DNA of 64,000 nt, from contig NZ_CP025116.1 of the NCBI RefSeq assembly GCF_002831625.1, positions 992,001 to 1,056,000 on the forward strand, given 5' to 3'. Position numbers and translations under genes: made by a program. Under the pieces are notes generated by a model. The model made no database searches. It was not told where the DNA came from and worked only from the letters and a program-made list of their open reading frames with translations. This document shows positions 2,957 through 62,519 of the stretch, piece by piece. Position 1 is the first letter of the stretch. Every line of letters begins with the position of its first letter. This DNA comes from Nonlabens sp. MB-3u-79 (GTDB lineage: Bacteria > Bacteroidota > Bacteroidia > Flavobacteriales > Flavobacteriaceae).

Positions 2957-2972
2957 CGCTTTCGCGAAAGCG
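2957..2972. repeat. HIP-like palindrome CGCTTTCGCGAAAGCG, perfect copy
   Basis: Perfect 16-bp palindrome in the spacer between the TonB receptor and the TPR-like gene. It lies in an open frame continuous with the downstream gene, so calling the longest frame would add a false N-terminal extension containing AFAKA. Confidence 0.95.
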
Positions 2973-3017
2973 AGATCGCCACTATCATTGTACCATATAT
3001 CAAATAAACTCTTACTT

Positions 3018-3635
3018 ATGAAAACTATACTCACCACTTTCATCCTGTTTTTATCACTAAGCCTCCACGCACAAACAGGCTACGAAAAAGCCATGCAAAA
3101 AGGACTAGAACTCATGGCAAGCGACTTGCAAGCAGCTTCACAACAATTTGAACGCATCTCAAAGGCCGAAAAAGAAAACTGGCTGCCACCTTATTACGCA
3201 GCTTTGTGCCATATTAACAGTTCTTGGGGGCAACTTCCTAAAGAGACCACCTTGCAACACATGAACAAAGCTCAAGAGCTCATCAATGATGCTGAATTCT
3301 TAACAGAGCACAATCCAGAAATCATGGTATTACAAGGCATGTTAAACACTTGTTGGATTCAATACGACAGCCGTACTTATGGCATGAAACTGTCTGGCCC
3401 GACTACTGCGCTTTATGATAAAGCCATAAGTATGGCTCCAGAAAACCCTAGGGTGATCAGCAACAGAGCAAGATGGTTGATGGGTAGCGCTCAATTCTTT
3501 GGTAAAGACATCGCGCCTTATTGCGGCGAGATCGACAAAGCGATTGAACTATTTGAAAAAGAAATCGCTACAGGTTTTGATCCTGGCTGGGGAAAAAAAG
3601 CAGCAACCGATGTAAAAAAGCAATGTGAGAAATAA
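3018..3635 (+). CDS. Exported TPR-like protein of unknown function
   Basis: The protein has 205 residues from ATG 3018. This start is preferred over one at 2910 because it gives a clean Sec signal (MKTILTTFILFLSLSLHAQ), while the upstream extension is low-complexity sequence made partly by the dispersed palindrome. The mature part is alpha-helical with helix-pair spacing resembling tetratricopeptide repeats (YEKAMQKGLELMASDL near the start, ALYDKAISMAPENPRVISN near residue 130). No enzymatic motif is visible. It is probably a periplasmic protein. It ends in a strong intrinsic terminator, so it forms its own transcription unit. Confidence 0.75.
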   Translation: MKTILTTFILFLSLSLHAQTGYEKAMQKGLELMASDLQAASQQFERISKAEKENWLPPYYAALCHINSSWGQLPKETTLQHMNKAQELINDAEFLTEHNPEIMVLQGMLNTCWIQYDSRTYGMKLSGPTTALYDKAISMAPENPRVISNRARWLMGSAQFFGKDIAPYCGEIDKAIELFEKEIATGFDPGWGKKAATDVKKQCEK

Positions 3636-3651
3636 GGTATCCATAACCATC

Positions 3652-3684
3652 AAAAGGGGCAGAATTAAATCTGCCCCTTTTTAA
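3652..3684 (+). terminator. Intrinsic terminator after the TPR-like gene
   Basis: Arms AAAAGGGGCAGA (3652-3663) and TCTGCCCCTTTT (3670-3681) pair perfectly around the loop ATTAAA and lead into a T run. The centre GCAGAATTAA recurs in hairpins at 21322 and 22452. Confidence 0.9.
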
Positions 3685-3946
3685 TGCTATTTGATTTTAC
3701 AGTCATTGAGATAGAAACTAAACATGTCAGTTCGAGCGAGAGTCGAGAACGATTACCTACCGAAAAAGCCATTACAAAGTTCAAGAGGTTTTTAAGCGAC
3801 CTATGCGGAATTTATTACAGTACTCTACCAAAAACACTCAGGCTTTGAAAAACTTTGTTTTAATAGCACTTTGACAAGCTCAGTGTGACAGAAGCTTTAA
3901 ATCTGGGTTTGATTATAAAACTATTTTCAACTTCTTTTACTTGTTA

Positions 3947-3962
3947 GGCTTTCGCGAAAGCG
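3947..3962. repeat. HIP-like palindrome, one mismatch (first base G)
   Basis: GGCTTTCGCGAAAGCG in the spacer upstream of the alpha-2-macroglobulin gene; the inner 14 bp are a perfect palindrome. Confidence 0.9.
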
Positions 3963-4080
3963 AGATAAAAACAGACACCGATTAAAATATTTCAAAAAAC
4001 TACAAGCTTATATAGCTAATCCTCAATAAGTTTCTATAATTTTAATAAAAATTCCTGTTCATCATTAAACTTACTGCGTT

Positions 4081-7000: not shown

Positions 7001-9603
7001 CGGAAATGGCTTCCATGCTTATTTTCAATGCAGATAAGAAGACCTATAAAGTAGGGGAGAACGCAAAAATTACGTTCCCATCATCAGCTGGCGGCCGTGC
7101 TTTAATTACTGTAGAAAACGGAACCGAAGTGCTCGACGCACAATGGGCAGAAACAAAGGATAAGCAAACTCAAGTTGACATACCGCTCCTTGATCCGTAT
7201 GTTCCTAACGTCTATGTTCATATTACTTATTTGCAACCGCATGCTCAAACGGCAAATGATCTTCCTTTGAGAATGTATGGGGTGATTCCATTGCTGGTTG
7301 AGAACGCCGCAACTCACCTCGAGCCAGAGATAAAGATGCCTAAAGAACTCGCTCCTAAAAGCAGCGCTGAGATTACCGTGAGTGAGAAAAATAATACAGC
7401 CATGACGTATACCCTTGCCGTTGTGGATGAAGGATTATTAGACTTGACCAACTTTAAAACACCAGATGCTTGGGACAGCTTCTTTGCTCGTGAGGCACTG
7501 GGTGTCAAGACTTGGGATGTTTTTGATGATGTGATCGGTGCTTATGGAGGTCGAATTGACGCTGCTTTTGCCATAGGTGGTGATGGAACAGCTGCAGCTT
7601 CTAAGGCTAAAAAAGCCAACCGATTCCAACCTATGGTCATTCATCTAGGACCTTTTACACTGAAGCCGGGCGAGAAGAAAACACATACTATTTCTATTCC
7701 TCAATATGTAGGTTCGGTACGCACGATGGTGGTTGCTGGAAATGACCGCAAGGAAGCTTACGGAAGTGCCGAAATTGCAACTCCGGTAAAAAAGCCATTA
7801 ATGATGCTGGCATCGCTTCCGCGAAAACTATCCCCTGGAGAAACAGTAAAACTACCAGTAACCGTTTTTGCAATGGACGATAAGGTAAAAGACGTTAAGG
7901 TGACATTAGAAAGCTCCCCATTCTTTGAATTATTAAATGGGAAGACACAGCAATTAAAGTTTACGGAGACCGGCGATCAAATCGCTTATTTTGATGTAAA
8001 AGTGAAGAAGGCTACAGGAATTGCTAAGTTGAAACTCTCTGCATCAGGGAACGGAGAAACTGCTGTTTACGAGACAGAAATCGATGTGGTGAATCCTAAT
8101 CCCTACAGTACCATTTCAGAAAAAGCGATGTTAAAACCTGGAGAAACAGCAACGATTTCTATCCAGCCTTTTGGCACTAAAGGAAGCAATGCCTCTACGC
8201 TAACTTTTTCTAGTTTGCCTGCTATGGATCTTGGCCGCAGATTGAATTACTTGATTCGTTATCCGCATGGTTGCGTGGAGCAAACTACCAGTGCTGCTTT
8301 TCCTCAATTGCACCTTTCTAGCGTGGTAGATTTGAATGGAAACCAGCAAAAACAAATCAGCTCTAATGTAAAAGCGGCGATCAATAAACTAGGCTATTAT
8401 CAGAAAGCAAATGGCGGTTTTTCTTACTGGCCAGGAGGCGGTAGCGCTAACGATTGGGGGACTACTTATGCGGGTCATTTTATGATCGAAGCAGAAAAAG
8501 CGGGATATACAGTTCCTATTTCGTTTAAATCCAACTGGATCGCCTATCAAAAACGAGTAGCAAAACAATGGAGGTACAACGACCACAATGACTTGTATCA
8601 AGCTTATAGGTTGTATACACTAGCCGTTGCAGGAGCACCAGACTTATCTTCTATGAACCGCTTACGCGAAAGCGCAAACCTTTCTAACGACAGCAAGTTA
8701 AGACTAGCTGCTGCCTATGCATTAGTAGGTCAGAACAAGGCAGCTGAAGAGCTATTAAAGAAGAGCAATATAGATTTCCAGCTGAGTAGTTATGATTATA
8801 GAACTTATGGTTCTCCACAACGTAATCGTGCTATGGCTCTAGAAACCTATACGATTATGAAAAAGGAGGAGCGTGCTAGACAGCTTATGGAAGAACTAGC
8901 TAGAAATCTAGACTCTGATCGCTATTACAACACCCAAGCATTAGCTTATAGCTTTATTGCCATCAGTAAATATGCAAAACATGTAGGAGGTAAAGGAGTG
9001 AATGTGGATTATACTTTTAAAGCTAAAACCAATAGCGTTTCCAGTGCTAAAAGTATTGCTAATCGCGATATAGATATTGACGAAAACCCAACTACAGTTA
9101 CAGTGAAAAACAAAGGGGACAATACTATTTTCATTACCAATGCCATGACCGGCAAATTGCCAGTAGGAAGTGAGAAAGCGGCTCAAAGCAAGCTGAGTGC
9201 GACTATGAATTATGTGGATAAAGATGGAAATGCGGTAAATGTGAGTAAGCTCAATCAAGGGACCGAGATCACTGCTGTTACTACCATTACCAACACCACA
9301 GGTTCTAGAATTGAAGATGTGGCCTTGACACAAATCTTGCCATCAGGTTGGGAAATAGTCAATACCAGATTTACAGATTATGGAGCCGAAAAAGCAAATA
9401 CCAGCATAGAATACACAGACATAAGAGATGACCGGGTGAACTATTATTTTGATCTAAAAGCAAAAGAAACACTGACTTTTAAGACCACAATAAATGCTAG
9501 TTATCTAGGCACCTACTATTTACCAGGTATACAATGTGAAGCCATGTATGACGCAGATTATATAGTCAGAAATAAAGGTCAATGGATAGAGGTGGTGAGG
9601 TGA
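4081..9603 (+). CDS. Alpha-2-macroglobulin family lipoprotein
   Basis: This very large protein (1840 residues) resembles bacterial alpha-2-macroglobulins, thought to trap attacking proteases in the cell envelope. It starts at TTG 4081: an in-frame TAA at 4066-4068 rules out a longer start, and the TTG is followed at once by a lipoprotein signal (MIKKSILFLFSLFVLASC, Cys18). Many beta-sandwich MG domains lead to a thioester-type motif, GCVEQTTSAAFPQL, with Cys1398 and Gln1401 both kept, and then an alpha/alpha toroid. An Asp/Tyr-rich insert lies at about 458-495. The penicillin-binding protein 1C gene often linked to this family is not adjacent. Decayed copies of the dispersed palindrome sit inside the gene at 7814 and 8659. 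Confidence 0.92.
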   Translation: MIKKSILFLFSLFVLASCTNKTDEEKLQEQQNELFKFREHVSQVSDHVISTREPILIKLTEPVEGWVAGKELDASWIQLYPSALGKLTVQDAQTISFLPEKPLKQDTEYEVKFQLGKVKEVAKDLREFTFNFKTIAQDFIVSTDPVGSYESDYQYINGAIQASDIMELENAKKLVVAKLNGNNLVVKFPNTNALGKFFEFKIDSIKRPIEDDQLEISWNGSGIGVNDQGSNTITLPGKNSFSVTDIELVNGDTAYILINFSDPLDKSQNLDGMIQIEGVDNMKFERKGNELKVFPSKSVTGSKKVEVFTGIKSVDGYKLKNGFSSFIAFEQVNPEVKLVRSGTILPSSQNSKINFKAVNLNAVDVWVYKVFNNNVLQFLQNNDLSSSGNLRDVGRPVARKVIDIKATGNDVNKWNTYSVDLNEIISSDPGAIYRVEFKYKLAYSAFKCEYTAENQPEIEEGDYDDSFEASNWDGAQNYYDEEYDYYDYNWRDREDPCTSSFYRNRSVSTNVLSSDLGITVKRGENNGYLIAVNDIISTKPLGGALVKLFNFQQQEISSGRTNNEGLLDIRPDKPAFFAKVTYNNEHGYVKLDDGNALSVSKFDTSGKRLQKGIKGYIYGERGVWRPGDHIYLTFMLNDTDNKLPNAHPIKLELRDPNGKITHSEVQKNGLNNFYQFDLTTDDAAPTGNWNAKIEVGGVSFNKMLKIETIKPNRLKVQLDFDEEVIKSRQNVKGSLNAMWLHGAIAKGLKASVTAKYYATTTQFKKYDSYVFDDPSRYFDLQESEVFDGNLDQNGDARFNFEPQMDSQAPGMLKASFLTKVYENGGDFSTNVTTKTYSPYDTYVGIDVPPGDKQRGMLLTDTDHNFDVVTLDQSGTPKATKNLEVKVYKVNWRWWWQSQAGSLSRYEASEYRQEVYSNRINTNSSGKGNFKFQLKYPEWGRYLVRIYDPASGHSTGKIIYVDWPGWAGKSRKVDPEMASMLIFNADKKTYKVGENAKITFPSSAGGRALITVENGTEVLDAQWAETKDKQTQVDIPLLDPYVPNVYVHITYLQPHAQTANDLPLRMYGVIPLLVENAATHLEPEIKMPKELAPKSSAEITVSEKNNTAMTYTLAVVDEGLLDLTNFKTPDAWDSFFAREALGVKTWDVFDDVIGAYGGRIDAAFAIGGDGTAAASKAKKANRFQPMVIHLGPFTLKPGEKKTHTISIPQYVGSVRTMVVAGNDRKEAYGSAEIATPVKKPLMMLASLPRKLSPGETVKLPVTVFAMDDKVKDVKVTLESSPFFELLNGKTQQLKFTETGDQIAYFDVKVKKATGIAKLKLSASGNGETAVYETEIDVVNPNPYSTISEKAMLKPGETATISIQPFGTKGSNASTLTFSSLPAMDLGRRLNYLIRYPHGCVEQTTSAAFPQLHLSSVVDLNGNQQKQISSNVKAAINKLGYYQKANGGFSYWPGGGSANDWGTTYAGHFMIEAEKAGYTVPISFKSNWIAYQKRVAKQWRYNDHNDLYQAYRLYTLAVAGAPDLSSMNRLRESANLSNDSKLRLAAAYALVGQNKAAEELLKKSNIDFQLSSYDYRTYGSPQRNRAMALETYTIMKKEERARQLMEELARNLDSDRYYNTQALAYSFIAISKYAKHVGGKGVNVDYTFKAKTNSVSSAKSIANRDIDIDENPTTVTVKNKGDNTIFITNAMTGKLPVGSEKAAQSKLSATMNYVDKDGNAVNVSKLNQGTEITAVTTITNTTGSRIEDVALTQILPSGWEIVNTRFTDYGAEKANTSIEYTDIRDDRVNYYFDLKAKETLTFKTTINASYLGTYYLPGIQCEAMYDADYIVRNKGQWIEVVR
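8659..8674. repeat. HIP-like palindrome, one mismatch, in alpha-2-macroglobulin gene
   Basis: CGCTTACGCGAAAGCG, read as RLRES in the toroid region of the host protein (the RFRES frame with one changed residue). Confidence 0.85.
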
Positions 9604-12600: not shown

Positions 12601-13869
12601 TTATAGGTCAAAACCTATATCCTTACGATAATACATCTTATCAAAATGTAGTTTTTCTACATTTTGGTAGGATTTTTTTAGGGCCTGTTTGAAATCGCTT
12701 CCATAACTAGTTACGGCCATAACGCGTCCACCATTAGTTATTATTTTCCCTTCTTTTAGAGCCGTCCCAGCATGAAAAACGATGCTGTCCTCTACATTTT
12801 TCAAGCCTGAAACCTCCATTCCTTTGTCGTAATTTTCTGGATAGCCACCTGCTACACACATTATAGTGGTCGCGCTTCTGGAATCTATAGTGAGCTGTTC
12901 TTTGTGCAGTTCCGCTTTCGCGAAAGCGTGTAAATGAGCCAGCAAATCACTAGAAATACGAGGTAAGACTACTTCGGTCTCTGGATCACCCATTCTTACA
13001 TTATACTCGATAACTTCAGGTGCTCCATTCACAATCATCAAACCTATGAATACAAAACCTTTATAAACAATAGCTTCTTTTGCAAAACCTTCAATAGTAG
13101 GTTTTATCACATGATCTTCTATTTTTTGCATCAACACATCGTCTGCAAAAGGAACCGGAGAGACAGCGCCCATACCGCCAGTGTTCAGTCCTGTGTCGCC
13201 TTCTCCTATGCGTTTATAATCCTTTGCGGTAGGCATTATTTTATAGGAAGTACCGTCGGTCATGACAAAAACACTCATCTCAATTCCATCGAGAAATTCT
13301 TCTATGACCACTTTATTAGACGCAGCACCAAATTTTCCACCTACCAGCATTTCCTCAAGAGATTCTTTTGCTTCCTTAGCTTGTGGAATGATAAGTACTC
13401 CTTTACCTCCAGCAAGTCCATCTGCTTTAAGTACGTATGGGGGTTTCAGACTATCTATAAAAGCCATTCCTTCTTTTAAGGTCTCTTTTGTAAAACTTTG
13501 ATAAGCTGCTGTAGGAATGTTGTTGCGCTGCATAAATTCCTTTGCAAATTCTTTAGAACCTTCCAGAGCCGCGGCTTGTTGAGATGGACCTATTACATTC
13601 ACATGCTGTAATTCTTCTGTCTGAAAATAATCGTAAACACCTTCTACAAGAGGCGCTTCTGGACCAACGATAACCATAGAAATATCATTCTCAAGAACAA
13701 AGGCTTTGATAGCAGGAAAGTCGGTAATTCCTAGATCTACATTTGTTGCAATTTCATGAGTTCCAGCATTTCCTGGAGCTACAAATAATTTGGAAAGAAG
13801 AGGACTCTTAATAATCGAGTGTGCAAAAGCGTGCTCGCGGCCACCGCTTCCTAAAATGAGAACATTCAT
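12601..13869 (-). CDS. purD: Phosphoribosylamine-glycine ligase (GARS)
   Basis: The second step of purine biosynthesis: ATP-dependent joining of glycine to 5-phosphoribosylamine. The 422 residues begin MNVLILGSGGREHAFAHSII, the classical PurD N-domain loop. The ATP-grasp region contains YVLKADGLAGGKGVLI and EYNVRMGDPETEVVLPR. The length is normal. A perfect copy of the dispersed palindrome lies in the C-terminal half (12913-12928) and adds HAFAKAEL to the protein between conserved elements, evidently tolerated. A good promoter (13889-13921) sits just upstream, so it is likely monocistronic. Confidence 0.97.
   Translation of the reverse strand: MNVLILGSGGREHAFAHSIIKSPLLSKLFVAPGNAGTHEIATNVDLGITDFPAIKAFVLENDISMVIVGPEAPLVEGVYDYFQTEELQHVNVIGPSQQAAALEGSKEFAKEFMQRNNIPTAAYQSFTKETLKEGMAFIDSLKPPYVLKADGLAGGKGVLIIPQAKEAKESLEEMLVGGKFGAASNKVVIEEFLDGIEMSVFVMTDGTSYKIMPTAKDYKRIGEGDTGLNTGGMGAVSPVPFADDVLMQKIEDHVIKPTIEGFAKEAIVYKGFVFIGLMIVNGAPEVIEYNVRMGDPETEVVLPRISSDLLAHLHAFAKAELHKEQLTIDSRSATTIMCVAGGYPENYDKGMEVSGLKNVEDSIVFHAGTALKEGKIITNGGRVMAVTSYGSDFKQALKKSYQNVEKLHFDKMYYRKDIGFDL
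12913..12928. repeat. HIP-like palindrome, perfect copy, in purD
   Basis: CGCTTTCGCGAAAGCG, read as AFAKA within the PurD protein. Confidence 0.95.
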
Positions 13870-15541: not shown

Positions 15542-16313
15542 TCTTAAGCTTCATGTTTCCCTTTACAAAAAACTGCTCATAAAAAAAGCGGCACAGCATC
15601 CAACTACTTTTGAGACTAGAATACCCCAAATGTTTCTTGTAAACTGCATAATTAAAAGGGATCAAATTCAGTTTGTTAGAAGATAGCCCATCGTCTGCTA
15701 GTCGATAACTGGCAATAGGTTCTTGAATTCCTATGGCAAAATCTGCTTGTTGAATCACGTCCAGCCACATGGCCCAATCTTGTCTTTTACGCAACGCTGG
15801 CATATAGAATTTACCTAGTTTTTTTGCGTTGTAGATTCCAGTAAGATTGCCTAGATAATTAGCTTTTAAGAGTTTCTGAAAGGTCAGTTTTTCAAATACT
15901 TGATGAATAAATTCTGGTTGATCTGGGGATGATTTGAAAATTTCATAAGCGCCATAACAAAAAGTAGCTTGCTGCTTTTTCATCGCCTGGAGCTGCACTT
16001 CTAGTTTATGAGGTTTCCATAAATCGTCTGCATCTAGGAATGCTATATAGGTGCCAGTTGCGGCTTCTACTCCTTTGTTTCGGGTGATTCCAGCTCCAAA
16101 ATTTGAAGCATTTTTTAAGTTGATAAAAGTTAGTTCTGAAGAGGTGTTTTTTGCAGCATAAGCTTTCGCGAAAGCGTAACTACCATCAGTACTACCATCG
16201 TCTATAACAATGATTTCTAAAGGTCGATGCGTTTGGGCTAGAATGCTGTCCAAGGATTCTTTTAGCGTTGTAAGGCTATTAAACGTTGGCGTTATGATAG
16301 AAACCAGGCTCAT
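15525..16313 (-). CDS. Glycosyltransferase family 2
   Basis: A 262-residue GT-A transferase. The N terminus SIITPTFNSLTTLKESLDSI and IIVIDDGSTDGSYAFAKAY form the nucleotide-sugar site, and FLDADDLWKPHKLEVQ is the DxD-type metal site. It resembles WcaA/EpsE-like enzymes that elongate exopolysaccharide or O-antigen repeat units on the cytoplasmic face. The gene begins directly after the stop of the WcaJ-like gene (16313/16314), so they are translationally coupled. The stretch YAFAKAY after the DDGS motif is encoded by a copy of the dispersed palindrome (16161-16176). Confidence 0.9.
   Translation of the reverse strand: MSLVSIITPTFNSLTTLKESLDSILAQTHRPLEIIVIDDGSTDGSYAFAKAYAAKNTSSELTFINLKNASNFGAGITRNKGVEAATGTYIAFLDADDLWKPHKLEVQLQAMKKQQATFCYGAYEIFKSSPDQPEFIHQVFEKLTFQKLLKANYLGNLTGIYNAKKLGKFYMPALRKRQDWAMWLDVIQQADFAIGIQEPIASYRLADDGLSSNKLNLIPFNYAVYKKHLGYSSLKSSWMLCRFFYEQFFVKGNMKLKIRPHS
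16161..16176. repeat. HIP-like palindrome, one mismatch, in GT2 gene
   Basis: AGCTTTCGCGAAAGCG, read as AFAKA within the glycosyltransferase. Confidence 0.9.
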
Positions 16314-18746: not shown

Positions 18747-19397
18747 TTAGATTACAGCATCCCCAAAAATAAATGGATTGGGATCGAGAATAATCTTCTT
18801 ATAATCCTCTAGCTCTTCTGTTGCTGCAACACCTGGAAAGTCTCCTTTATAAGTTTTCATATCGGTCATGATCTGAAAGTGCAGGTGTGGAGAATAACCA
18901 CCATTTTCTTCTGGTTTTCCTAAGCTTGCTATAATCTCGCTTTCGCGAAAGCGGAACCCCACAGACCATTTTTCCATGTCACTTATTGAGAGGTGGCCAT
19001 AAAGAGTATAGAGTTTCTTAGTGTTGAGATCGTGTTCCAAAATTAAGGTAGGACCGTAATTTCCAGCGTCGTCGTTGTGAGCATAACTGTGTACAACGCC
19101 ATCCATAAAGGCGTGAATACTAGTCCCTGCAGGAGCCCAAAGATCGATTCCCATATGAACATCTCGTACATTACCAGATTGAAATCGAGCCGATTTTCTA
19201 TACAAAGCACGCTGTTCTAAATAACCACCGTGAGCCACATATTTACCAGTAAGAGCACGTTGTTCTTGCAGGTACTTTTCAAAAACAGGAATGTCACTCA
19301 CATCATTCTCATCCCAAAAGGAATTTGCAACCGACAGATTTATAGGGAAATAGTCCTCTGAACTGTATTTAGGATCGATAAGGTGTTTAAATGTCAT
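18747..19397 (-). CDS. M23-family peptidoglycan endopeptidase-like protein
   Basis: About 216 residues from ATG 19397 (MTFKHLIDPKYSSEDYFPIN). A farther ATG at 19448 would add 17 residues with no known counterpart. The LytM/M23 fold is shown by HMGIDLWAPAGTSIHAF (HxxxD zinc ligands), LYGHLS and SPHLHFQ (HxH). No signal peptide or membrane segment is visible, unusual for a cell-wall hydrolase, so the site of action is uncertain. A perfect copy of the dispersed palindrome encodes FRFRES just before the C-terminal metal motif. It is divergent from the CoA transferase operon. Confidence 0.82.
   Translation of the reverse strand: MTFKHLIDPKYSSEDYFPINLSVANSFWDENDVSDIPVFEKYLQEQRALTGKYVAHGGYLEQRALYRKSARFQSGNVRDVHMGIDLWAPAGTSIHAFMDGVVHSYAHNDDAGNYGPTLILEHDLNTKKLYTLYGHLSISDMEKWSVGFRFRESEIIASLGKPEENGGYSPHLHFQIMTDMKTYKGDFPGVAATEELEDYKKIILDPNPFIFGDAVI
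18938..18953. repeat. HIP-like palindrome, perfect copy, in M23 gene
   Basis: CGCTTTCGCGAAAGCG, read as RFRES in the peptidase. Confidence 0.95.
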
Positions 19398-19511
19398 GAT
19401 AATGAATGATTCAATGTTATAGCAATTTAATGAAATACTTGCCTTCATATTGCCGATAAGCGCTTTAAATCCTCAATAAATTGGTGTATTTTTAAACCAA
19501 AGAATTTTGAT

Positions 19512-25131: not shown

Positions 25132-25147
25132 CGCTTTCGCGAAAGCG
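25132..25147. repeat. HIP-like palindrome, perfect copy, permease-ATPase spacer
   Basis: CGCTTTCGCGAAAGCG within the DUF5687/ATPase operon spacer. As RNA it could fold into a 6-bp stem with a CGCG loop. Confidence 0.95.
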
Positions 25148-30505: not shown

Positions 30506-30544
30506 CAGCCGAATTAAAGAACATAACTTTTTACGGTGTATTAC

Positions 30545-31753
30545 ATGTATAGAGCTTACCTAAAAACAGCTTTTTTCGCTTTGGTTTTTATTGCTTTCGC
30601 GAAAGCGAATGGACAAAATGACCACGAGAAACAATTAACTAAGGGTGAAAAAATCGTCTTTGATGAAGTTGATGGTGGCGATTATGGCGAAGGAGATGCT
30701 GTAAACACCAAGACTGAAGTAGATAATTTTATAGCGCATCACCTTCAAGATTCCCATTATTTTACTCTTTTTGAAAAGGTTGAAGATCACTTTTTTGTAA
30801 GTCTACCACTACCCGTCATCATATGGGATAATGGTTTAAGAGTTTTTATGTCATCTCTGTTCCACCATGGTGAAGAGATTGCAGAAATTGACGGCAACTA
30901 TTATCAATTGCACCATAGCAAAATATATAAGGTCAATGGACCAGATGATTTTATCGCCGCAGATGTTCACCATCCAGAAAATATAAAGCCTTTTGATATT
31001 TCAATTACCAAGAATGTGGTTACCGCGATTCTAGTGGGACTGATTATTTTCTTGATCTTTGGTGGGCTAGCAAAGCAGTATAAAAAACGTTCCATTCCTA
31101 AAGGTTTTGGTCGTGTATTAGAACCTTTGGTAATTTATGTTCGTGACGAGATCGCAAAGCCTAATGTGGGAGAGAAAAAGTACCGCAAGTTTATGGGTTT
31201 CTTATTAACGGTTTTCTTTTTTATCTGGATTGCAAACTTGTTAGGACTTACTCCTCTAGGAACTAATTTAACTGGTAACATAGCCGTAACGGTATGTTTG
31301 GCTTTAGTGACCTATCTCATTACAACCTTTAGTGCCAACAAAGATTACTGGAAGCATATTTTCTGGATGCCAGGTGTACACTGGGTCATGAAAATTTTCT
31401 TTATACCTATTGAATTACTAGGAACATTGACCAAGCCATTTGCGCTTTTAGTACGTTTATATGCAAATATAACTGCAGGTCACGTGGTACTTTTTACCTT
31501 ATTAGGAGCGATTACCGTTGCCAAAACAGATTTAGATGTTACCACTGGAGCAAGTATAGGATATGGGGTCTTTTACTTTATTCTTGCTTTGTTTATCACA
31601 TTAATAGAATTATTAGTAGCTTTTCTACAAGCATATATATTCACCCTACTTTCTGCCCTATTCATAGGTATGGCGGTAGCAGAGCATGATCATCCAGAAC
31701 ATGCCGGTGCAAAAGAAGATGATGTAGATGAAGTAAGAGAACGTTTTGTTTAA
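30545..31753 (+). CDS. atpB: F0F1 ATP synthase subunit a
   Basis: The membrane stator subunit that carries the proton half-channels. About 402 residues from ATG 30545; a GTG at 30536 is a weaker option lying three codons up. The N terminus MYRAYLKTAFFALVFIAF is a signal-like helix, followed by a periplasmic domain of about 130 residues typical of Bacteroidota AtpB, then five or six membrane helices. LLVRLYANITAGHVVLFTLL holds the essential Arg. A palindrome copy at 30592 encodes AFAKA at residues 17-21, right at the end of the signal-like helix, where cleavage would be expected. Confidence 0.93.
   Translation: MYRAYLKTAFFALVFIAFAKANGQNDHEKQLTKGEKIVFDEVDGGDYGEGDAVNTKTEVDNFIAHHLQDSHYFTLFEKVEDHFFVSLPLPVIIWDNGLRVFMSSLFHHGEEIAEIDGNYYQLHHSKIYKVNGPDDFIAADVHHPENIKPFDISITKNVVTAILVGLIIFLIFGGLAKQYKKRSIPKGFGRVLEPLVIYVRDEIAKPNVGEKKYRKFMGFLLTVFFFIWIANLLGLTPLGTNLTGNIAVTVCLALVTYLITTFSANKDYWKHIFWMPGVHWVMKIFFIPIELLGTLTKPFALLVRLYANITAGHVVLFTLLGAITVAKTDLDVTTGASIGYGVFYFILALFITLIELLVAFLQAYIFTLLSALFIGMAVAEHDHPEHAGAKEDDVDEVRERFV
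30592..30607. repeat. HIP-like palindrome, one mismatch, in atpB signal region
   Basis: TGCTTTCGCGAAAGCG, read as AFAKA at the end of the N-terminal hydrophobic segment of subunit a. Confidence 0.9.
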
Positions 31754-33137: not shown

Positions 33138-33153
33138 CGCTTTCGCGAAAGTG
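33138..33153. repeat. HIP-like palindrome, one mismatch, atpH-atpA spacer
   Basis: CGCTTTCGCGAAAGTG, 118 bp upstream of the atpA start; the flanks TTTATT and AAACAA are A+T rich. Confidence 0.85.
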
Positions 33154-35934: not shown

Positions 35935-35950
35935 TGCTTTCGCGAAAGCG
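35935..35950. repeat. HIP-like palindrome, one mismatch, after atp operon
   Basis: TGCTTTCGCGAAAGCG in the spacer between the atp terminator and the convergent hypothetical gene. Confidence 0.9.
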
Positions 35951-37633: not shown

Positions 37634-38752
37634 ATGCAATTAAAAGGGACCAGATTAGAAGTAAATTTAGAAGCGCTAGCCCACAACTACCATTATTTGC
37701 GTAGCAAAATAAGTGAAGACACTAAATTTATGTCGGTCGTTAAGGCTAATGCTTATGGCCATGGAATGGTACCTATTGCCCAAAAACTACAAGAATTAGG
37801 AACAGACTATTTTGCGACCGCTTATATGGAGGAAGGCGTAGAATTGAGAGATAACGGAATTATAAAACCCATTCTCATTCTCCATCCACAGCAGCACAAT
37901 CTGGATGTATGCATAGATCGCTGTTTAGAGCCGGTTATTTATAGTATGGAGATGCTCGATGCTTTTACCGCTTCCGCGAAAGCGAAACAACAACAATCCT
38001 ATCCCATACATTTAGAATTCAATACTGGATTAAATCGCATAGGAATAGATCATAAAGATGTAGACAACGTCCTGGAAAAGCTATCCTCTAGCCCAGAAGT
38101 CAAAGTACGAGGTTTACAATCACATCTCGCAGCCAGTGAAGATCTAGGTGAAAGTGTTTTTACTCAAAAACAAATTGCTTTATTTGAAGAAATCACATCA
38201 AAAGTTCAACAAAAATTGGGTTATGAGATTCTTAAACACGAATCCAATACCAGCGGTCTTCTCAATTATAAGAACGCCCATTTTAGCATGGTGCGCTCAG
38301 GAATAGGCCTGTATGGTTATGGAAACGATGCACAGTATGATGCACATCTAAAACCTATTGCGACCCTTATCTCCAACATTTCACAGATACGAACTATAGA
38401 AGCTGGTGAGACGGTAAGTTATAACCGCAAGTTTGTTGCAAAGGGTCGAACTACCTATGCCGTTGTTGCACTAGGTCATGGCGATGGAATTAATCGCATC
38501 TATGGGTATGGGAAGCTAGAAGTTAGAATTAACGGGAAGTCAGCCCCTACATTAGGTATTATATGTATGGATATGTTCATGGTAGACATGAGCTCCATAG
38601 AGGCAAAAGTGGGGGATGAAGTTGTTATTTTTGACCCTCACATTCACACTTCAAGACAAATGGCTGAAGATGCCGGCACCATTTCTTACGAACTCCTCAC
38701 AGGTATTCAAAAACGGGTAAGACGCGTGTATTTAAATAATGCATCCAATTAA
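37634..38752 (+). CDS. alr: Alanine racemase
   Basis: Makes D-alanine for peptidoglycan. The 372-residue PLP enzyme carries the cofactor lysine Lys37 in SVVKANAYGHG and RSGIGLYGYGND and NRIYGYG further on. The length is normal. A one-mismatch palindrome at 37969 encodes TASAKAKQQQS in a surface stretch around residue 115. It is coupled to tdk with no gap. Confidence 0.95.
   Translation: MQLKGTRLEVNLEALAHNYHYLRSKISEDTKFMSVVKANAYGHGMVPIAQKLQELGTDYFATAYMEEGVELRDNGIIKPILILHPQQHNLDVCIDRCLEPVIYSMEMLDAFTASAKAKQQQSYPIHLEFNTGLNRIGIDHKDVDNVLEKLSSSPEVKVRGLQSHLAASEDLGESVFTQKQIALFEEITSKVQQKLGYEILKHESNTSGLLNYKNAHFSMVRSGIGLYGYGNDAQYDAHLKPIATLISNISQIRTIEAGETVSYNRKFVAKGRTTYAVVALGHGDGINRIYGYGKLEVRINGKSAPTLGIICMDMFMVDMSSIEAKVGDEVVIFDPHIHTSRQMAEDAGTISYELLTGIQKRVRRVYLNNASN
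37969..37984. repeat. HIP-like palindrome, one mismatch, in alr
   Basis: CGCTTCCGCGAAAGCG, read as ASAKA (the AFAKA frame with Phe changed to Ser). Confidence 0.88.
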
Positions 38753-44096: not shown

Positions 44097-45026
44097 ATGT
44101 TGCAATTGATTGATATTAGTTTCGCTTTCGCGAAAGCGGAAACTCTAAAAAATATTTCCCTAAAAATGAAACAGGGAGCTCATGTCGCTGTGATAGGGGA
44201 AAGCGGCTGTGGTAAAAGCACTCTCTTAGACATCGTTTACGGGTTGTTACAGGCACAAAAAGGTGTTGTCAAGTGGAATGATGAAGAGTTAGAGGGAGCA
44301 GACCACCATTTGGTGCCGGGGCATTCCATGATGAAATACGTGCCACAGGAATTTGACCTCATGCCTTTTACGAGCGTCTTTGAAAACGTAGGAGAGCATC
44401 TTTCTATTCAAATAGACGATCGAGTAAGTCGTATTGATGAATTGCTCGATGTAGTCGATATGAGCAGCTTTAAAAACCGCAAGGTGAAAACACTTTCTGG
44501 CGGACAGAAACAACGTGTAGCGATCGCAAAAGCACTCGCTCAGGAGCCTCAACTCTTATTGCTCGATGAACCATTCTCACACATCGATAACTTCAGGAAA
44601 AATGAGTTGCGTAGAAAACTTTTTGATTACCTGACCCATAATAATATCAGCTGTTTAGTAGCCACACATGATCGAGATGATGTGCTTTCTTTTTGTCATC
44701 AAACCATCATCATGAAGGAAGGTCAGATTATCGATTTTAGAGCGACAGCAGAGGTGTATGGAAGTCCATTAAGCACCTATACTGCAGCTTTGTTTGATGA
44801 GGTCAATGCGATTCCTAAGAACTGGTTGGATACTAAGGAGGATTTAATTCTGTACCCACACCAGTTGAAGGTTTCTAAAACTGGCTTTTCTGTGGAGGTA
44901 CAACAGTCTTTTTTTCAAGGAGCAGATTATCTAATTACCGCACAAAAAGATCAAAAAAAGCTTTTTTTTAGATCAAAAAAGATCCTTGAAATAGGCAAAG
45001 AAGTGTTTTTAAACACGATTTCCTAG
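44097..45026 (+). CDS. ABC transporter ATP-binding protein
   Basis: A 309-residue ATPase. Walker A is GESGCGKST near residue 37, the signature LSGGQKQRVAIAKAL near 139, Walker B LLLLDEPFSHID near 158 and the switch His lies in CLVATHDRDDV. A C-terminal domain of about 80 residues follows the ATPase core, as in importer ATPases of the sugar/polyamine type. No permease gene is adjacent, so the transporter is unknown. A perfect palindrome copy at the very start encodes FAFAKAETLK in the first beta-strand region of the domain. Confidence 0.9.
   Translation: MLQLIDISFAFAKAETLKNISLKMKQGAHVAVIGESGCGKSTLLDIVYGLLQAQKGVVKWNDEELEGADHHLVPGHSMMKYVPQEFDLMPFTSVFENVGEHLSIQIDDRVSRIDELLDVVDMSSFKNRKVKTLSGGQKQRVAIAKALAQEPQLLLLDEPFSHIDNFRKNELRRKLFDYLTHNNISCLVATHDRDDVLSFCHQTIIMKEGQIIDFRATAEVYGSPLSTYTAALFDEVNAIPKNWLDTKEDLILYPHQLKVSKTGFSVEVQQSFFQGADYLITAQKDQKKLFFRSKKILEIGKEVFLNTIS
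44123..44138. repeat. HIP-like palindrome, perfect copy, in ABC ATPase gene
   Basis: CGCTTTCGCGAAAGCG, read as AFAKA at residues 10-15 of the ATPase. Confidence 0.95.
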
Positions 45027-47438: not shown

Positions 47439-47948
47439 CTATTTTTTACGTTTAAAAACCGGTACAGAGGAGCAAGCTTCTCCGTACATAATAGATCGAG
47501 CTACCTCTTGTAACTTCTCGGTCATCATGGCGTACGCGGCAACGGGAACAGGTTTGTTAGAGCAGCCTTTTACAATTACTGGAGCGTCTTGAAACTCACT
47601 CACATCAATACTTGCGATCACTTCTCTATAAATTTCAGTTTCTAATTGTTCCAGAGAGCCATAAACTACTTTTTTAGCAATTCCATAAAGGTGGCTTTGC
47701 ACCAGCATCCACGCCCATTGTGGTACAATGGCATCTTCACTGCAATGGATAGCTACGTAATGATTGTTATATACGGAGAAGTCTGTTGTTTTTAAGCTTT
47801 CGCGAAAGCGGGATTCCACAAGCACTATTCCCTCTAACAACCATTGAGAAATATCAATAATTGTTCTAGGTCCAGGCGGATAAAAATCTTCTAAGTCAAA
47901 GGTTTTTAACTTAGAACTTGTAACGCGATTGATGATTTCTTTTGTCAT
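47439..47948 (-). CDS. DUF2480 family protein, end of SUF operon
   Basis: A 169-residue soluble protein matching DUF2480, a Bacteroidota family normally encoded at the end of the SUF operon (LEDFYPPGPRTIIDISQWL near residue 20, GCSNKPVPVAAYAMMTEKLQ near 130). The function is unknown. Its position suggests a role in Fe-S assembly or trafficking (inference). It starts 2 nt after the sufT-like stop. A palindrome copy at 47795 adds SRFRESL. Confidence 0.8.
   Translation of the reverse strand: MTKEIINRVTSSKLKTFDLEDFYPPGPRTIIDISQWLLEGIVLVESRFRESLKTTDFSVYNNHYVAIHCSEDAIVPQWAWMLVQSHLYGIAKKVVYGSLEQLETEIYREVIASIDVSEFQDAPVIVKGCSNKPVPVAAYAMMTEKLQEVARSIMYGEACSSVPVFKRKK
47795..47810. repeat. HIP-like palindrome, one mismatch, in DUF2480 gene
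   Basis: AGCTTTCGCGAAAGCG, read as RFRES in the protein. Confidence 0.9.
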
Positions 47949-54321: not shown

Positions 54322-54337
54322 CGCTTTCTCGAAAGCG
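54322..54337. repeat. HIP-like palindrome, one mismatch, sufC-sufD spacer
   Basis: CGCTTTCTCGAAAGCG, 15 bp before the sufD start; the changed base lies in the central CGCG. Confidence 0.85.
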
Positions 54338-57085: not shown

Positions 57086-57101
57086 CGCTTTCGCGAAAGC
57101 G
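57086..57101. repeat. HIP-like palindrome, perfect copy, sufA-sufB spacer
   Basis: CGCTTTCGCGAAAGCG in the 49-bp spacer between sufA and sufB, so it lies in their common transcript. Confidence 0.95.
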
Positions 57102-57118
57102 TCATTTAAATCATCTTA

Positions 57119-57448: not shown

Positions 57449-57474
57449 ATTAAATAGCTTATTTATAACGATTA

Positions 57475-57482
57475 CAAATATA
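57475..57482 (-). promoter_or_regulatory. TAnnTTTG box of the SUF operon
   Basis: TATATTTG on the minus strand, 26 nt before the sufA ATG. No TTG -33 element is clear. Confidence 0.5.
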
Positions 57483-57606
57483 CAACACACTAAGCTGTAA
57501 AATCGGTCGAGCTATGATATTCTCATATAGCGTTATTTAATCTATTGATGAGTAGAGTTTTCTTAAATATTAAGTTATTTTTATGTGGCCATTCTTGCCT
57601 AAATCG

Positions 57607-57614: not shown

Positions 57615-57618
57615 CAGG

Positions 57619-59743: not shown

Positions 59744-59747
59744 GAAG

Positions 59748-59755: not shown

Positions 59756-59827
59756 ATAGCTAGTTCACGGATAGGTGATCATAAATGGGTCAGGGTTGTG
59801 AAATATTTGTTAATTTAGCCATTCACA

Positions 59828-61180
59828 ATGGGAAAGAACTATCTATACTTATTGAGCATCTTATTTATATTTTTGGTTTCTTGTACAGACACCGAAGATT
59901 ATGAATTGGCGAGAACAGCTTTAGATATTCGTCTGGAAGAATTGCTAGAGCAAAATGCGAATGGGCAGGGCAAAAGTTTTTTCTTATTGCCAGATAGTGA
60001 TGATTTTAATGCGATACCTCAAGATCCGTTAAATCCATTAAACACTTATAAAGTTGCTTTAGGACAATTGTTGCTGCATGAAACGGCTGCCGCTGGCGCG
60101 CCTAAAATGAGTCAAATGGAAGGCACTTATTCTTGCGCTTCCTGCCATCCTGTAGCTTCCAGCTTTTATTCTGGTCTAAGGCAAGGAATCGGGGAAGGAG
60201 GGACTGGTTTTGGTTTTGCTGGAGAAGGCAGACAAATTGATTTGAACATGCCATTGGACTCGGTAGACTTACAGCCGGTACGGGTACCTACTTTATTAAA
60301 CGTTGCTTATCAAGAAACAGCTTTGTGGAACGGTATGTTGGGAGGAACGGGTCCTAATGTAGGAACTGAATCCAGATGGGCAGCAACAGGAGTTCCTGAA
60401 AATAATTTGGGTTTTCAAGGCATAGAAACACAAGCTTTAGTAGGACAGTCCACGCACAGACTTCAAATCGATGAAAATTTTATAGATAATAATGGTTACC
60501 GATGGCTTTTTGACCAAGCCTTCCCACATGTAGCCCTCAGTTCTAGGTATACCTCACAAACTGCTGCCCTAGCACTTGCTGCCTTTAATAGGACACTTTT
60601 GGCAAACCGTTCTCCATGGCAAGATTATTTAAAAGGAGATTACAATGCTATTTCTGATCGAGAGAAAAGAGGCGCTATTGTTTTTGCAGACAAAGGAGAG
60701 TGTATAACTTGTCATACCGGTCCAGCACTGAAAGATCAGGAATTTCACGCTTTTGGCTTTGGACACTTTGACGACTCTAATGCTGCAATAGTTTTAGATG
60801 ATGCAGGCTTTGATAATGTAAAAAAAGGACGCGGAGGCTTTACAGGAGACCCATCTGATAATTATAAGTTTAAGACACCAACTCTATACAATTTACGCGA
60901 TGCAGCTTTCTACGGTCATGGTGCTACCTTTAGTAGTATAGAAGAAGTGGTGCGGTATAAAAATAATACTTCCCTACAGGATCAAAACGCTTCTTCAAAT
61001 CTGGCTTCAGAAATGGGTGCTATTCACCTTACTGAAGAAGAAATATCAGATCTTGTTTATTTTTTAGAAAACACTTTGTACGATGCAGAATTAACTCGCT
61101 ATGTGCCAGATGCCGTGCAGTCTGGGAACTGTTTTCCTAATGCAGACCCCCAAAGTAGAATTGATTTAGGCTGTAATTAA
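59828..61180 (+). CDS. Di-haem cytochrome-c peroxidase/MauG-family lipoprotein
   Basis: A 450-residue lipoprotein (MGKNYLYLLSILFIFLVSC, Cys19). Two c-type haem sites are present: CASCH at 103-107 and CITCH at 292-296, matching the two-domain bacterial cytochrome-c peroxidase/MauG layout. It probably reduces peroxide or oxidises a partner at the envelope. LQPVRVPTLLNVAYQETALW and FKTPTLYNLRDAAFYGHG are family motifs near the haems. No electron donor gene is adjacent. Confidence 0.88.
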   Translation: MGKNYLYLLSILFIFLVSCTDTEDYELARTALDIRLEELLEQNANGQGKSFFLLPDSDDFNAIPQDPLNPLNTYKVALGQLLLHETAAAGAPKMSQMEGTYSCASCHPVASSFYSGLRQGIGEGGTGFGFAGEGRQIDLNMPLDSVDLQPVRVPTLLNVAYQETALWNGMLGGTGPNVGTESRWAATGVPENNLGFQGIETQALVGQSTHRLQIDENFIDNNGYRWLFDQAFPHVALSSRYTSQTAALALAAFNRTLLANRSPWQDYLKGDYNAISDREKRGAIVFADKGECITCHTGPALKDQEFHAFGFGHFDDSNAAIVLDDAGFDNVKKGRGGFTGDPSDNYKFKTPTLYNLRDAAFYGHGATFSSIEEVVRYKNNTSLQDQNASSNLASEMGAIHLTEEEISDLVYFLENTLYDAELTRYVPDAVQSGNCFPNADPQSRIDLGCN

Positions 61181-61352
61181 AACAGTCAATTATCTATATA
61201 TCAATGGAACTTGTGCCATTACCTAGAGTCGGTTTCCAATCTATTGGACACTAATATCAACACCTTAATACTTCTAATTTTAAAGAGCTCAAATTTTTAT
61301 TTGCCTTTAATATTACTTGTATATATTTATTTAATAAGGCTGAGTTATACCT

Positions 61353-61360
61353 TACATTTG
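61353..61360 (+). promoter_or_regulatory. TAnnTTTG box of the endonuclease-family gene
   Basis: TACATTTG 20 nt before the TTG start at 61381; it supports transcription starting just upstream of that codon. Confidence 0.45.
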
Positions 61361-61380
61361 AGGGCTAAAATATTCTTGCC

Positions 61381-62370
61381 TTGTCCATTCCTTCACAATC
61401 TTTTGAGCAGTACACTGTTGCTTTTTATAATGTTGAAAATCTTTTTGACGCTATTAATGACCCACAGGTAGTAGATGAAGATTTTACTGATTTTGGCCGT
61501 AAGAATTGGACAGAAAATAGGTATCAAAAGAAACTCACTAAAATAAGCGATGCGATAAGTAAGATAGGTTTTGAACTTACCGGTAAATTACCAGCATTAG
61601 TAGGTCTTGCAGAAGTCGAGAACAAAAAAGTGCTTCACGATCTCATTACCCAACCTAAACTCGCTCAGAGCACTTATGATTTTATTCATTACAACAGTCC
61701 AGATGAGAGAGGAATAGACGTAGCTTTATTGTACGATACTCGGGTTTTTATACCTAGTCATTCAGAGCCTCTTGTTATACATTTAGAAAACGAAGAAGGG
61801 GTGCGTGATGCTACTAGGGATATACTTTATGTTGAAGGAGTTCTAGCGGGTACTCCAGTTCATATTTACGTAAATCACTGGCCGTCACGTCGCGATGGCA
61901 CAGAGACTACCGATGCCAAGAGGGTTGAGGTAGCTAGTCAATTAGTACAACACCTAGAAAAAAAGGACCCAAACAGTAAACGCACCGATCAACATTTAGA
62001 ATTAAAAGAGGCACACCATGTGATTATCATGGGGGATTTTAACGACGATCCAGAGAATAAGAGTATCAAAGAAGGAATTTTACCTATGGGTTTTGATAAT
62101 ATAACAGCTCCTTTAAAGAAGTTTCATCGAGGTTCATTGAATCATCAATTTAAATGGAATCTTTTTGATCAGATCATGATTAGTGAGAGTTTACATAATG
62201 ATGTTCCTAATTCTTTATATTTTCATAAAGCAGATATTTTTGACGACATTATGTTGAGACAATGGAAGGGAAAATATCGCGGTCAACCAGCTCGAACATT
62301 TGCAGGAAACAATTATAAAGGTGGTTATAGTGATCATTTTCCGGTTTTTGCGCTGTTCAGGAGAAACTAA
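61381..62370 (+). CDS. Endonuclease/exonuclease/phosphatase family protein
   Basis: A 329-residue protein of the DNase I-like metallophosphatase fold. FYNVENLFDAINDPQVVDED, GLAEVENKKVL, VNHWPSRRDG, IMGDFNDDPENKS and GGYSDHFPVFA give the full set of active-site motifs. The start is TTG 61381: an in-frame TAA at 61366 excludes a longer frame and the conserved FYNVEN lies at residue 15. It has no signal peptide with this start. The substrate (DNA, phospholipid or nucleotide) cannot be told. Confidence 0.88.
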   Translation: MSIPSQSFEQYTVAFYNVENLFDAINDPQVVDEDFTDFGRKNWTENRYQKKLTKISDAISKIGFELTGKLPALVGLAEVENKKVLHDLITQPKLAQSTYDFIHYNSPDERGIDVALLYDTRVFIPSHSEPLVIHLENEEGVRDATRDILYVEGVLAGTPVHIYVNHWPSRRDGTETTDAKRVEVASQLVQHLEKKDPNSKRTDQHLELKEAHHVIIMGDFNDDPENKSIKEGILPMGFDNITAPLKKFHRGSLNHQFKWNLFDQIMISESLHNDVPNSLYFHKADIFDDIMLRQWKGKYRGQPARTFAGNNYKGGYSDHFPVFALFRRN

Positions 62371-62503
62371 GACGTTATTGAACCCCAAAACGAACCTCTT
62401 AATCTATTATAGATTTGTTAAACAGAAGTAGGGATAGTTTTTTTATATATTCACCAAACTAGATATAAGCATACTATTTATAGATTTCTAATTTTTATCA
62501 TTT

Positions 62504-62519
62504 CGCTTTCGCGAAAGCG
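62504..62519. repeat. HIP-like palindrome, perfect copy, before porP
   Basis: CGCTTTCGCGAAAGCG with flanks ATTT and GAAT, in the 244-bp spacer upstream of the PorP/SprF gene. Confidence 0.95.

What the first reader, a model, noticed from the sequence alone, without database searches (positions are those of the whole stretch)
2957..62519. Dense dispersed palindrome CGCTTTCGCGAAAGCG (HIP1-like element)
Eight perfect copies (2957, 12913, 18938, 25132, 28887, 44123, 57086, 62504) and nine with one mismatch (3947, 8659, 16161, 30592, 33138, 35935, 37969, 47795, 54322) occur in 64 kb, about one per 4 kb, in a low-G+C background where fewer than one is expected by chance. Flanks often extend the symmetry with TT(C/T) before and (G/A)AA after. 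Spacing is even and copies fall both in and between genes, unlike REP or MITE elements. It looks like the cyanobacterial HIP1 type: a word kept or spread genome-wide. The centre TCGCGA could be a methylation or nucleoid-protein site.
Basis: partly seen in the sequence, partly recalled or inferred. Interest (0 to 1): 0.85.

Follow-up and report, generated by a model that had tools for sequence, protein, structure and literature searches.

The report
Genome-wide palindromic self-tag in marine flavobacteria
A 16-letter DNA palindrome with specially composed flanks is written hundreds of times, well spaced, through the genomes of one genus of flavobacteria and of two other sampled genera, and looks like a protein-read 'self' mark, perhaps a DNA-uptake signal.

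Summary
All 17 reported copies are there plus one two-mismatch copy (18 found, 0.02 expected). The genome holds 427 perfect copies (reversed control 0); all 22 congeners searched hold 180-737. Of 256 sampled genomes of other genera in the family, two more have hundreds (630, 153) and 27 have 1-12; in the eight low-count genomes inspected the copies lie in a shared metal-resistance island.

It is more than a 16-mer. Copies sit between about 28 bp of G/T-rich, C-poor 5' flank and a mirrored A/C-rich 3' flank, with preferred T positions, in genes and between them. The arms show no pairing beyond chance past the first base, which favours a protein reading duplex DNA. Copies avoid each other within 2 kb. 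Empty orthologous places mostly show no length change (168 of 197 alignments): substitution in place. Sub-words outside sites stay near expectation; no C5 methylase was found in the own genome.

Not HIP1 by membership, not REP/MITE, not a terminator. Best reading: a self-DNA recognition word, most likely an uptake signal; rivals are a chromosome-architecture site or a two-way Chi-like site. The reading protein is unknown.

The parts
2957..2972 (.). perfect palindrome, intergenic by own gene model
3947..3962 (.). one mismatch (position 1), intergenic
8659..8674 (.). one mismatch (position 6), inside the ORF 4081-9603
12913..12928 (.). perfect, inside the purD-like ORF 12601-13869 (GARS domains)
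16161..16176 (.). one mismatch (position 1), inside the glycosyltransferase-2 ORF 15525-16313
18938..18953 (.). perfect, inside the M23 peptidase ORF 18747-19448
25132..25147 (.). perfect, intergenic, 26 bp after the ORF ending at 25105
28887..28902 (.). perfect, inside the ORF 26998-29613
30592..30607 (.). one mismatch (position 1), near the start of the ORF 30536-31753
33138..33153 (.). one mismatch (position 15), intergenic
35935..35950 (.). one mismatch (position 1), intergenic between convergent ORFs
37969..37984 (.). one mismatch (position 6), inside the alanine racemase ORF 37634-38752
44123..44138 (.). perfect, near the start of the ABC transporter ORF 44097-45026; the orthologous site in congener G005 carries a 21-bp insert at its centre
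47795..47810 (.). one mismatch (position 1), inside the DUF2480 ORF 47439-47948
54322..54337 (.). one mismatch (position 8), between the ORFs 52993-54306 (SufBD domain) and 54404-55156
57086..57101 (.). perfect, between the SufBD-domain ORF 55621-57069 and the ORF 57119-57490
62504..62519 (.). perfect, intergenic

Best explanation
The element is a dyad-symmetric DNA recognition site of about 70 bp: a near-invariant 14-16 bp palindrome plus weaker, asymmetrically composed arms (C-poor, with T preferred at -2, -3, -6, -9, -11 and -12 on the 5' side of each strand). It is read as duplex DNA by a protein, inferred to be a homodimer or symmetric complex. SHOWN: real, genome-wide and genus-wide; present in two further sampled genera; arms go with the word; strongly maintained; mostly more than 2 kb apart; absence in orthologs without length change, which implies substitution in place. 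INFERRED: it marks DNA as 'self'. Most likely it is an uptake signal of natural transformation: a receptor prefers fragments that carry it, incoming alleles with the word replace alleles without it, and a second copy on the same fragment gains nothing, which gives the 2-kb exclusion zone. That a receptor exists, and that the genus is naturally transformable, is not shown.
For: Copy number 180-737 in 23 of 23 genomes of the genus, reversed control 0. Two further genera with 630 and 153; G250 has the same arms (skew 0.40; T 0.77 at -2, 0.57 at -3, 0.50 at -6 and -9) and even spacing (CV 0.57). Arms: GC skew +0.54/-0.47 in genes and +0.46/-0.54 between genes at 4-20 bp; the same T positions in 124 of 281 sites, those where all six frames are closed within 75 bp. 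Where an ortholog lacks the word the skew is gone (-0.03/+0.05 against +0.38/-0.37). Substitution in place: 168 of 197 absent alignments have net length 0. Maintenance: at 72-80% local identity 229 of 273 ungapped orthologs of perfect sites keep 15-16 of 16 bases. Exclusion: 38 pairs within 2 kb against 145 expected, ratio about 1.1 beyond. No orientation preference between genes. Two phages of the genus have no copy within 3 mismatches in 70.7 kb. DprA domain in 23 of 23 congeners, ComEC domain in 22 of 22 own-genus genomes searched. Haemophilus uptake words have a core with weaker AT-rich arms (PMC7811141, passages) and even spacing was seen by Karlin et al. (cited in PMC1939737, passage). 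Self-preferring uptake is reported for Riemerella columbina, placed by its authors in Flavobacteriaceae (PMC7965970, section and passages read).
Against: The Haemophilus USS is not palindromic (PMC12616744, passage). DprA and ComEC are too widespread to explain anything genus-specific: ComEC in 13 of 14 genomes of other families, DprA in 11 of 14 control genomes. I saw no report of transformation in this genus, but no search tested it well (one search listed no paper with the genus name). Flavobacterium johnsoniae was not competent in the R. columbina study (PMC7965970). [quoted passage not shown] Density (about one per 5 kb) is lower than in Haemophilus (about one per kb). Near-misses are rare: 248 perfect, 34 one-off, 16 two-off 14-mers, while drive models foresee intermediates. 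Arms are weaker at sites that some relative lacks (+0.12/-0.17), and G234 has the core with hardly any arms (skew 0.12). A purely architectural site would share most of these marks.
Confidence: 0.42

Rival explanations
1. Chromosome-architecture site: a genus-specific nucleoid protein (dimer plus arms) binds hundreds of spaced sites and bridges or organises the chromosome.
For: Palindrome and long symmetric arms suit a dimeric, wrapping or spreading protein; spacing is regular with a 2-kb exclusion; no preference for gene orientation; 0-6 copies per 20 kb in 20 stretches spread over the chromosome.
Against: Only one ParB-type protein in G000 and in 19 of the 22 own-genus genomes searched, so no genus-wide Noc-like paralog. 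No spacing period beyond 2 kb. Selection on each of over 600 single sites would have to be strong. Three genera that do not group in a quick SufB tree use the same 16-mer.
Confidence: 0.25
2. Two-way Chi-like site: the end-processing nuclease stops at the palindrome from either side and leaves a 3' strand whose last 30 or so bases are G/T-rich, good for RecA loading; a palindrome needs no orientation.
For: The arm on the 5' side of the site is G/T-rich on both strands, the side on which RecA would be loaded after Chi (Chi polarity recalled). RecA prefers TGG-like, Chi-like repeats (PMC3763553, start of abstract seen in a listing). T peaks follow a weak 3-base rhythm in non-coding sites (p 0.049).
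Against: Over-represented words of the Chi kind are typically 5-10 nt (PMC4390886, introduction) and not palindromic (recalled); mutual exclusion within 2 kb is not expected of Chi; the polarity argument is a single two-way outcome.
Confidence: 0.13
3. HIP1-like word kept by an orphan methylase and methylation-guided repair.
For: Palindromic, genome-wide, in and between genes; deviations gather at the first and last base (67 of 111 mismatches), as reported for HIP1 (PMC4390886, section 2.6).
Against: Inner words outside the sites are near expectation (TCGCGA 99 vs 101, TTCGCGAA 4 vs 12, CTTTCGCG 3 vs 10, CGAAAGCG 11 vs 8, CGCTTTC 81 vs 67). No C5-methylase domain in G000 and in 7 of the 21 other own-genus genomes searched, which hold 422-680 copies. 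A 14-bp unit with arms exceeds known methylase sites (recalled). N6/N4 methylases were not searched.
Confidence: 0.07
4. Dispersed mobile repeat (REP/REPIN/MITE) spread by a transposase.
For: Palindromic, hundreds of copies; Y1 transposase domain in 17 of 23 congeners.
Against: 168 of 197 empty orthologous alignments have no length change (long inserts could escape because alignments had to span the site); over half of classified sites lie within genes, in all three frames; 6 of 23 congeners have no Y1 match yet hold 255-680 copies.
Confidence: 0.02
5. RNA-level element (terminator, Rho-type or hairpin processing signal).
For: It can form a hairpin; the strand 3' of the site is C-rich and G-poor in either direction.
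Against: Intergenic copies follow the share of intergenic bases by orientation: 82 codirectional, 20 divergent, 15 convergent against 91,865, 25,937 and 18,074 bp. 147 of 268 lie well inside genes. Arms do not pair better than shuffled partners (z -1.6 and -1.9 at offsets 4-12 and 13-28); only offset 1 differs, with z +2.5 in the pooled genus but -2.1 in G000 alone.
Confidence: 0.03

Closest known systems
DNA uptake sequences (USS of Pasteurellaceae, DUS of Neisseriaceae)
   Same: Hundreds of copies, genic and intergenic, core with weaker arms, even spacing, lineage-restricted; the word is absent from two phages of the genus
   Different: 16-bp palindrome with symmetric, strand-biased arms of about 28 bp; lower density; clear 2-kb exclusion; transformation of this genus unknown to me; few intermediates
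HIP1 and alternative HIPs of cyanobacteria
   Same: Palindromic, genome-wide, in and between genes, deviations at the outer bases
   Different: Twice as long, has arms, inner words near expectation outside sites, no C5-methylase match in own genome, different sequence and phylum
Chi sites
   Same: Genome-wide word; G/T-rich on the side where RecA would load
   Different: Palindromic and long, with arms, mutually excluding
Architecture and occlusion sites (Noc, SlmA, matS; recalled)
   Same: Palindromic protein site of similar core length, repeated round the chromosome
   Different: Far more copies; no ParB paralog shared by the genus; a gap at the terminus could not be tested at this sampling

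Membership tests
HIP1 / HIP | 8-mer GCGATCGC or an alternative short GC-rich palindrome | tested here: not met
   unit is CGCTTTCGCGAAAGCG plus arms; inner words near expectation outside sites
HIP1 / HIP | cognate DNA methylase of an inner sequence | tested here: inconclusive
   no C5 methylase match in G000 and 7 of 21 other own-genus genomes; N6/N4 families not searched
USS / DUS | many genome-wide copies in and between genes, made by substitution in place | tested here: met
USS / DUS | core with weaker arms and even spacing | tested here: met
USS / DUS | DNA carrying the word is preferentially taken up by competent cells | not testable with these tools
   needs a transformation assay
USS / DUS | competence machinery and a cognate receptor | tested here: inconclusive
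   DprA and ComEC domains present but not specific; receptor unknown
REP / REPIN / MITE | inserted element, mainly extragenic, tied to a transposase | tested here: not met
Chi | short oriented word that modulates the end-processing nuclease | not testable with these tools
   not short, not oriented; activity untested
Noc-type (ParB paralog) sites | a second ParB-family protein in all carriers | tested here: not met
   one ParB_N match in 19 of 22 own-genus genomes, G000 among them
Intrinsic terminator / RNA hairpin | placed at 3' ends, arms pair and covary | tested here: not met

The most novel reading that the evidence does not exclude
A new kind of genomic self-label: a 16-bp palindrome with strand-polarised arms (G/T-rich 5', A/C-rich 3'), mostly one per more than 2 kb, read symmetrically by a still unknown protein, able to colonise a new genus and rewrite it by in-place substitution in genes and spacers (three genera of one family that do not group in a quick SufB tree), and carried elsewhere as a passenger on a metal-resistance island. 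It would join uptake or recombination bias to a palindromic, orientation-free signal, unlike the one-sided USS, DUS and Chi.
Probability: 0.35. Interest if true: 0.9.

Novelty: new variant of a known kind. Interest (0 to 1): 0.74.

Why it matters
Genome-wide words that a lineage writes into its own DNA are few, and the best known (USS, DUS, Chi, HIP1) were described in other phyla. This one is long, symmetric, almost genus-limited, has measurable arms and an exclusion distance, and occurs in three genera beside more than 200 sampled genera of the family that have few copies or none. That contrast makes the search for the reading protein tractable and lets one ask directly how such a word is born, kept and spread. 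It is also a ready marker of DNA moved out of these genera.

Tried and rejected
Rejected with data: chance; confinement to the window; mobile repeat; terminator or RNA hairpin; short methylase core (in part); Noc-like ParB paralog.

Led nowhere: a search for other palindromic 'dialects' in 80 loci of other taxa (3,866 to 21,449 bases each) gave only three loci with weak hits, while the word itself shows up by part of the same rule (two or more copies of its 14-mer) in 50 of 55 own-genus stretches. Orthologs of G250 and G234 sites in held own-genus DNA: 2 distant alignments of one site, neither with the word; no power. A helical 10.5-bp rhythm of T in the arms: p 0.48. Two papers asked for by DOI were not held.

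Caveats: gene models are my own crude ORF scoring. Searches required a central GC and so dropped the one-mismatch site 54322; later counts include it. One search left out sites within 60 bp of stretch ends or only partly in a gene. Counts are not independent: most congener stretches are orthologous to the window and one site appears in many species pairs; of 970 alignments 751 have the word (up to 2 mismatches), 197 lack it (4 or more), 22 lie between; alignments had to span the site and 60 bp each side, so long inserts could be missed. One search dropped gapped sites and imperfect query sites. The Markov expectation was trained on DNA that includes the sites. Perfect copies alone are less even (CV 0.69 and 0.67). 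The tree is one protein, quick method, weakly resolved.
Full report
Identity of the genome. The window lies at 992,001-1,056,000 of a single 3,184,776-bp contig, G000. The genus is probably Nonlabens (Flavobacteriaceae): congeners G002 (3,914,632 bp) and G019 (2,915,920 bp) match sizes I recall for N. dokdonensis DSW-6 and N. marinus S1-08. No call names the genus.

All 17 listed copies and one more (59447) are there; 0.02 expected. G000 holds 427 perfect copies, and the reversed control gives 0. In one search, 59 genomes were searched: all 23 of the genus (G000 included) hold 180-737 copies; of 36 genomes of other genera one holds 4 and the rest none. In one search, of 256 genomes of other genera in the family, 29 have a match: G250 630, G234 153, and 27 with 1-12. 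In one search, of 166 genomes outside the family two have a single copy.

The unit. In 1,199,469 bases of own-genus DNA there are 286 copies within two mismatches (194, 73, 19). Mismatches gather at the outermost bases (67 of 111). The inner 14-mer occurs 248 times perfectly, 34 times with one and 16 times with two mismatches, against means of 0.00, 0.10 and 3.33 for 60 permuted palindromes, one of which reached 99 at two mismatches. Inner words outside the sites are near second-order Markov expectation: TCGCGA 99 vs 101, CGCG 1059 vs 1503, TTCGCGAA 4 vs 12, CTTTCGCG 3 vs 10, GCGAAAGC 10 vs 13, CGCTTTCG 6 vs 8, CGAAAGCG 11 vs 8, GAAAGCG 69 vs 67, CGCTTTC 81 vs 67. Nearly all the excess is in the whole word.

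The arms. The 5' side of each strand is C-poor and G/T-rich and the 3' side is the mirror image (first seen). GC skew at 11-20 bp from the centre is +0.51 and -0.56, fading by about 50 bp. T has preferred places: in 124 of 281 sites, those where all six frames are closed within 75 bp, T is 0.77 at -2, 0.76 at -3, 0.58 at -6, 0.69 at -9, 0.57 at -11 and 0.73 at -12, against 0.35 background. A similar, weaker pattern holds inside genes. All 20 congeners sampled (14 by one stretch, one by three, five by four) show the same sign of skew. The two halves do not pair beyond chance: at offsets 4-12 complementarity is 0.335 against 0.349 for shuffled partners, at 13-28 0.280 against 0.294; offset 1 alone departs, upward in the pooled genus (z 2.5) and downward in G000 (z -2.1). 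This argues for a protein reading duplex DNA, not for a hairpin.

Place and spacing. Of 268 classified sites, 147 lie at least 30 bp inside a gene and 121 between genes, with about 12% of bases between genes by my crude models. All three codon frames are used (AFAKA 71, RFRES 47, LSRK 29). Of the intergenic copies, 117 have genes on both sides; they follow the available bases, with no liking for convergent or divergent gaps. Interval CVs are 0.40-0.61 in six genomes of the genus against 0.94-0.97 for random placement, and 0.57 and 0.60 in G250 and G234. Pairs within 0.5, 0.5-1, 1-1.5 and 1.5-2 kb are 2, 9, 10 and 17 against 37, 37, 36 and 36 expected; beyond 2 kb the ratio is flat at about 1.1 (all held blocks pooled). 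So copies exclude each other over about 2 kb without a period. Three of 20 sampled stretches of G000 hold 0-1 copies (L121, L127, L129): two are low in G+C (0.348 and 0.339) and the third is mostly one 14.9-kb ORF. L121 encodes a HEPN/Toprim and a PIN protein.

History. Sites were aligned with their orthologs among 21 genomes. Of 970 alignments 751 have the word, 197 lack it and 22 lie between. Of the 197 (54 different sites), 168 show no length change over the site and 60 bp each side. Flank skew is +0.38/-0.37 in orthologs that have the word and -0.03/+0.05 in those that lack it; the intact partners of the latter have weaker arms themselves (+0.12/-0.17). At 72-80% local identity, 229 of 273 ungapped orthologs have 0-1 differences in the 16-mer, 5 have 2-3, none has 4-5, and 39 have 6-11: the word is either intact or something else, with hardly any intermediate. 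One coding case (G003 position 9243 against G020 and others) reads, by my own reading of the aligned DNA, RFRES where relatives have PYRDK, without a gap. In an intergenic case the copy at window 25132 is missing in G005, which has another perfect copy a few tens of bases away.

Other carriers. G250 has the same arms (skew 0.40); G234 has the core with little of the arms (0.12). In a quick SufB tree neither sits with the own genus, five rows of which group with support 99 (weakly resolved elsewhere). Low-count genomes often share copies at repeated distances (933 and about 2,446-2,481 bp). Eight of the 27 were inspected (G033; G117, G122, G131, G145, G155, G188, G259): their word-bearing stretches share homologous DNA at 75-97% identity. 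In L214 it encodes an RND efflux pump, an outer-membrane efflux protein, an AraC-type regulator, a multicopper oxidase, an ArsP-type permease and P-type ATPases, and L207 an RND pump fused to an efflux protein (10 proteins scanned); homologs of eight proteins of L214 and L207 recur in the other stretches. The island carries the word with arms (skew 0.32) into hosts that otherwise have few copies or none; all nine near-copies of G033 lie within about 100 kb of one contig. The simplest reading is that the island evolved in a word-writing host. Phages: two phages of the genus have no copy within 3 mismatches; 41 stretches of IMG/VR contain the word, with weaker arms (0.20).

Proteins tested. Y1 transposase: 17 of 23 congeners, so not needed. 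DprA 23 of 23. ComEC domain 35 of 36 relatives, all 22 of the genus among them. ParB: one match in 19 of 22 own-genus genomes, two or three in the rest. C5 methylase: none in 8 of 22 own-genus genomes, G000 included. No candidate reader was found.

Interpretation. A word that is intact or absent, made by substitution in any frame, indifferent to transcription, symmetric in its arms, and rarely repeated within 2 kb, is best explained by one symmetric DNA-reading protein and a benefit that saturates locally. An uptake signal does this: one word per incoming fragment is enough, and recombination then spreads word-bearing alleles. The Haemophilus word has a core with weaker AT-rich arms (PMC7811141, passages); uptake words were called evenly spaced by Karlin et al., though PMC1939737, which cites this, finds them not even enough for compaction signals (passages); Neisseriaceae have dialects by lineage (PMC3630211, abstract); self-preferring uptake is reported for Riemerella columbina, while Flavobacterium johnsoniae was not competent in the same study (PMC7965970, section and passages). 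Against the uptake reading stand palindromy, low density, few intermediates, and no known transformation in the genus. A chromosome-organising protein explains nearly as much. A two-way Chi-like site explains the polarity of the arms: the G/T-rich arm lies where RecA would load (RecA prefers TGG-like repeats; PMC3763553, start of abstract in a listing).

Literature. No paper in the library held the 12-mer CTTTCGCGAAAG or joined 'highly iterated palindrom' with 'flavobacter'. The listing for Nonlabens with 'palindrom' gave 7 papers, none of which by title concerns this word; they were not read. Ten searches were made. Most subscription journals are not held, so absence from print is not shown.

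Noticed in passing
L207, L208, L209, L214-L220, L229: A heavy-metal-resistance island (RND efflux, outer-membrane efflux, multicopper oxidase, ArsP-type permease, P-type ATPases) shared at 75-97% identity by eight inspected genera carries the word at recurring places into hosts that otherwise have few copies or none; the word marks its likely origin.
   Followed up: partly
window 44123; L174 (G005): In congener G005 the orthologous site is split at its centre by a 21-bp insert, itself nearly palindromic (CCTGCCTCCCGGCAGGCAGG with the base before it) and a multiple of three in length.
   Followed up: no
window 25132; L173 (G005): The intergenic copy is missing in G005, which has a different perfect copy a few tens of bases away, as if the gap rather than the exact place were kept supplied.
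   Followed up: no
L225-L228 (G234): A genus with 46.5% G+C uses the same core with almost no arms; it may be a young or decaying user of the word.
   Followed up: partly
L129:4491-19343: A 14.9-kb open reading frame of about 4,950 codons without a single copy of the word.
   Followed up: no
L121, L127: Stretches of lower G+C with one copy each; L121 encodes HEPN/Toprim and PIN proteins. Copies may be scarce in acquired DNA.
   Followed up: partly
own-genus noncoding sites: T in the arms follows a weak three-base rhythm (p 0.049) although these sites are not coding.
   Followed up: no
L131-L171: 41 stretches of IMG/VR contigs contain the word while two phages of the genus have none; these may be prophages or host DNA.
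   Followed up: partly
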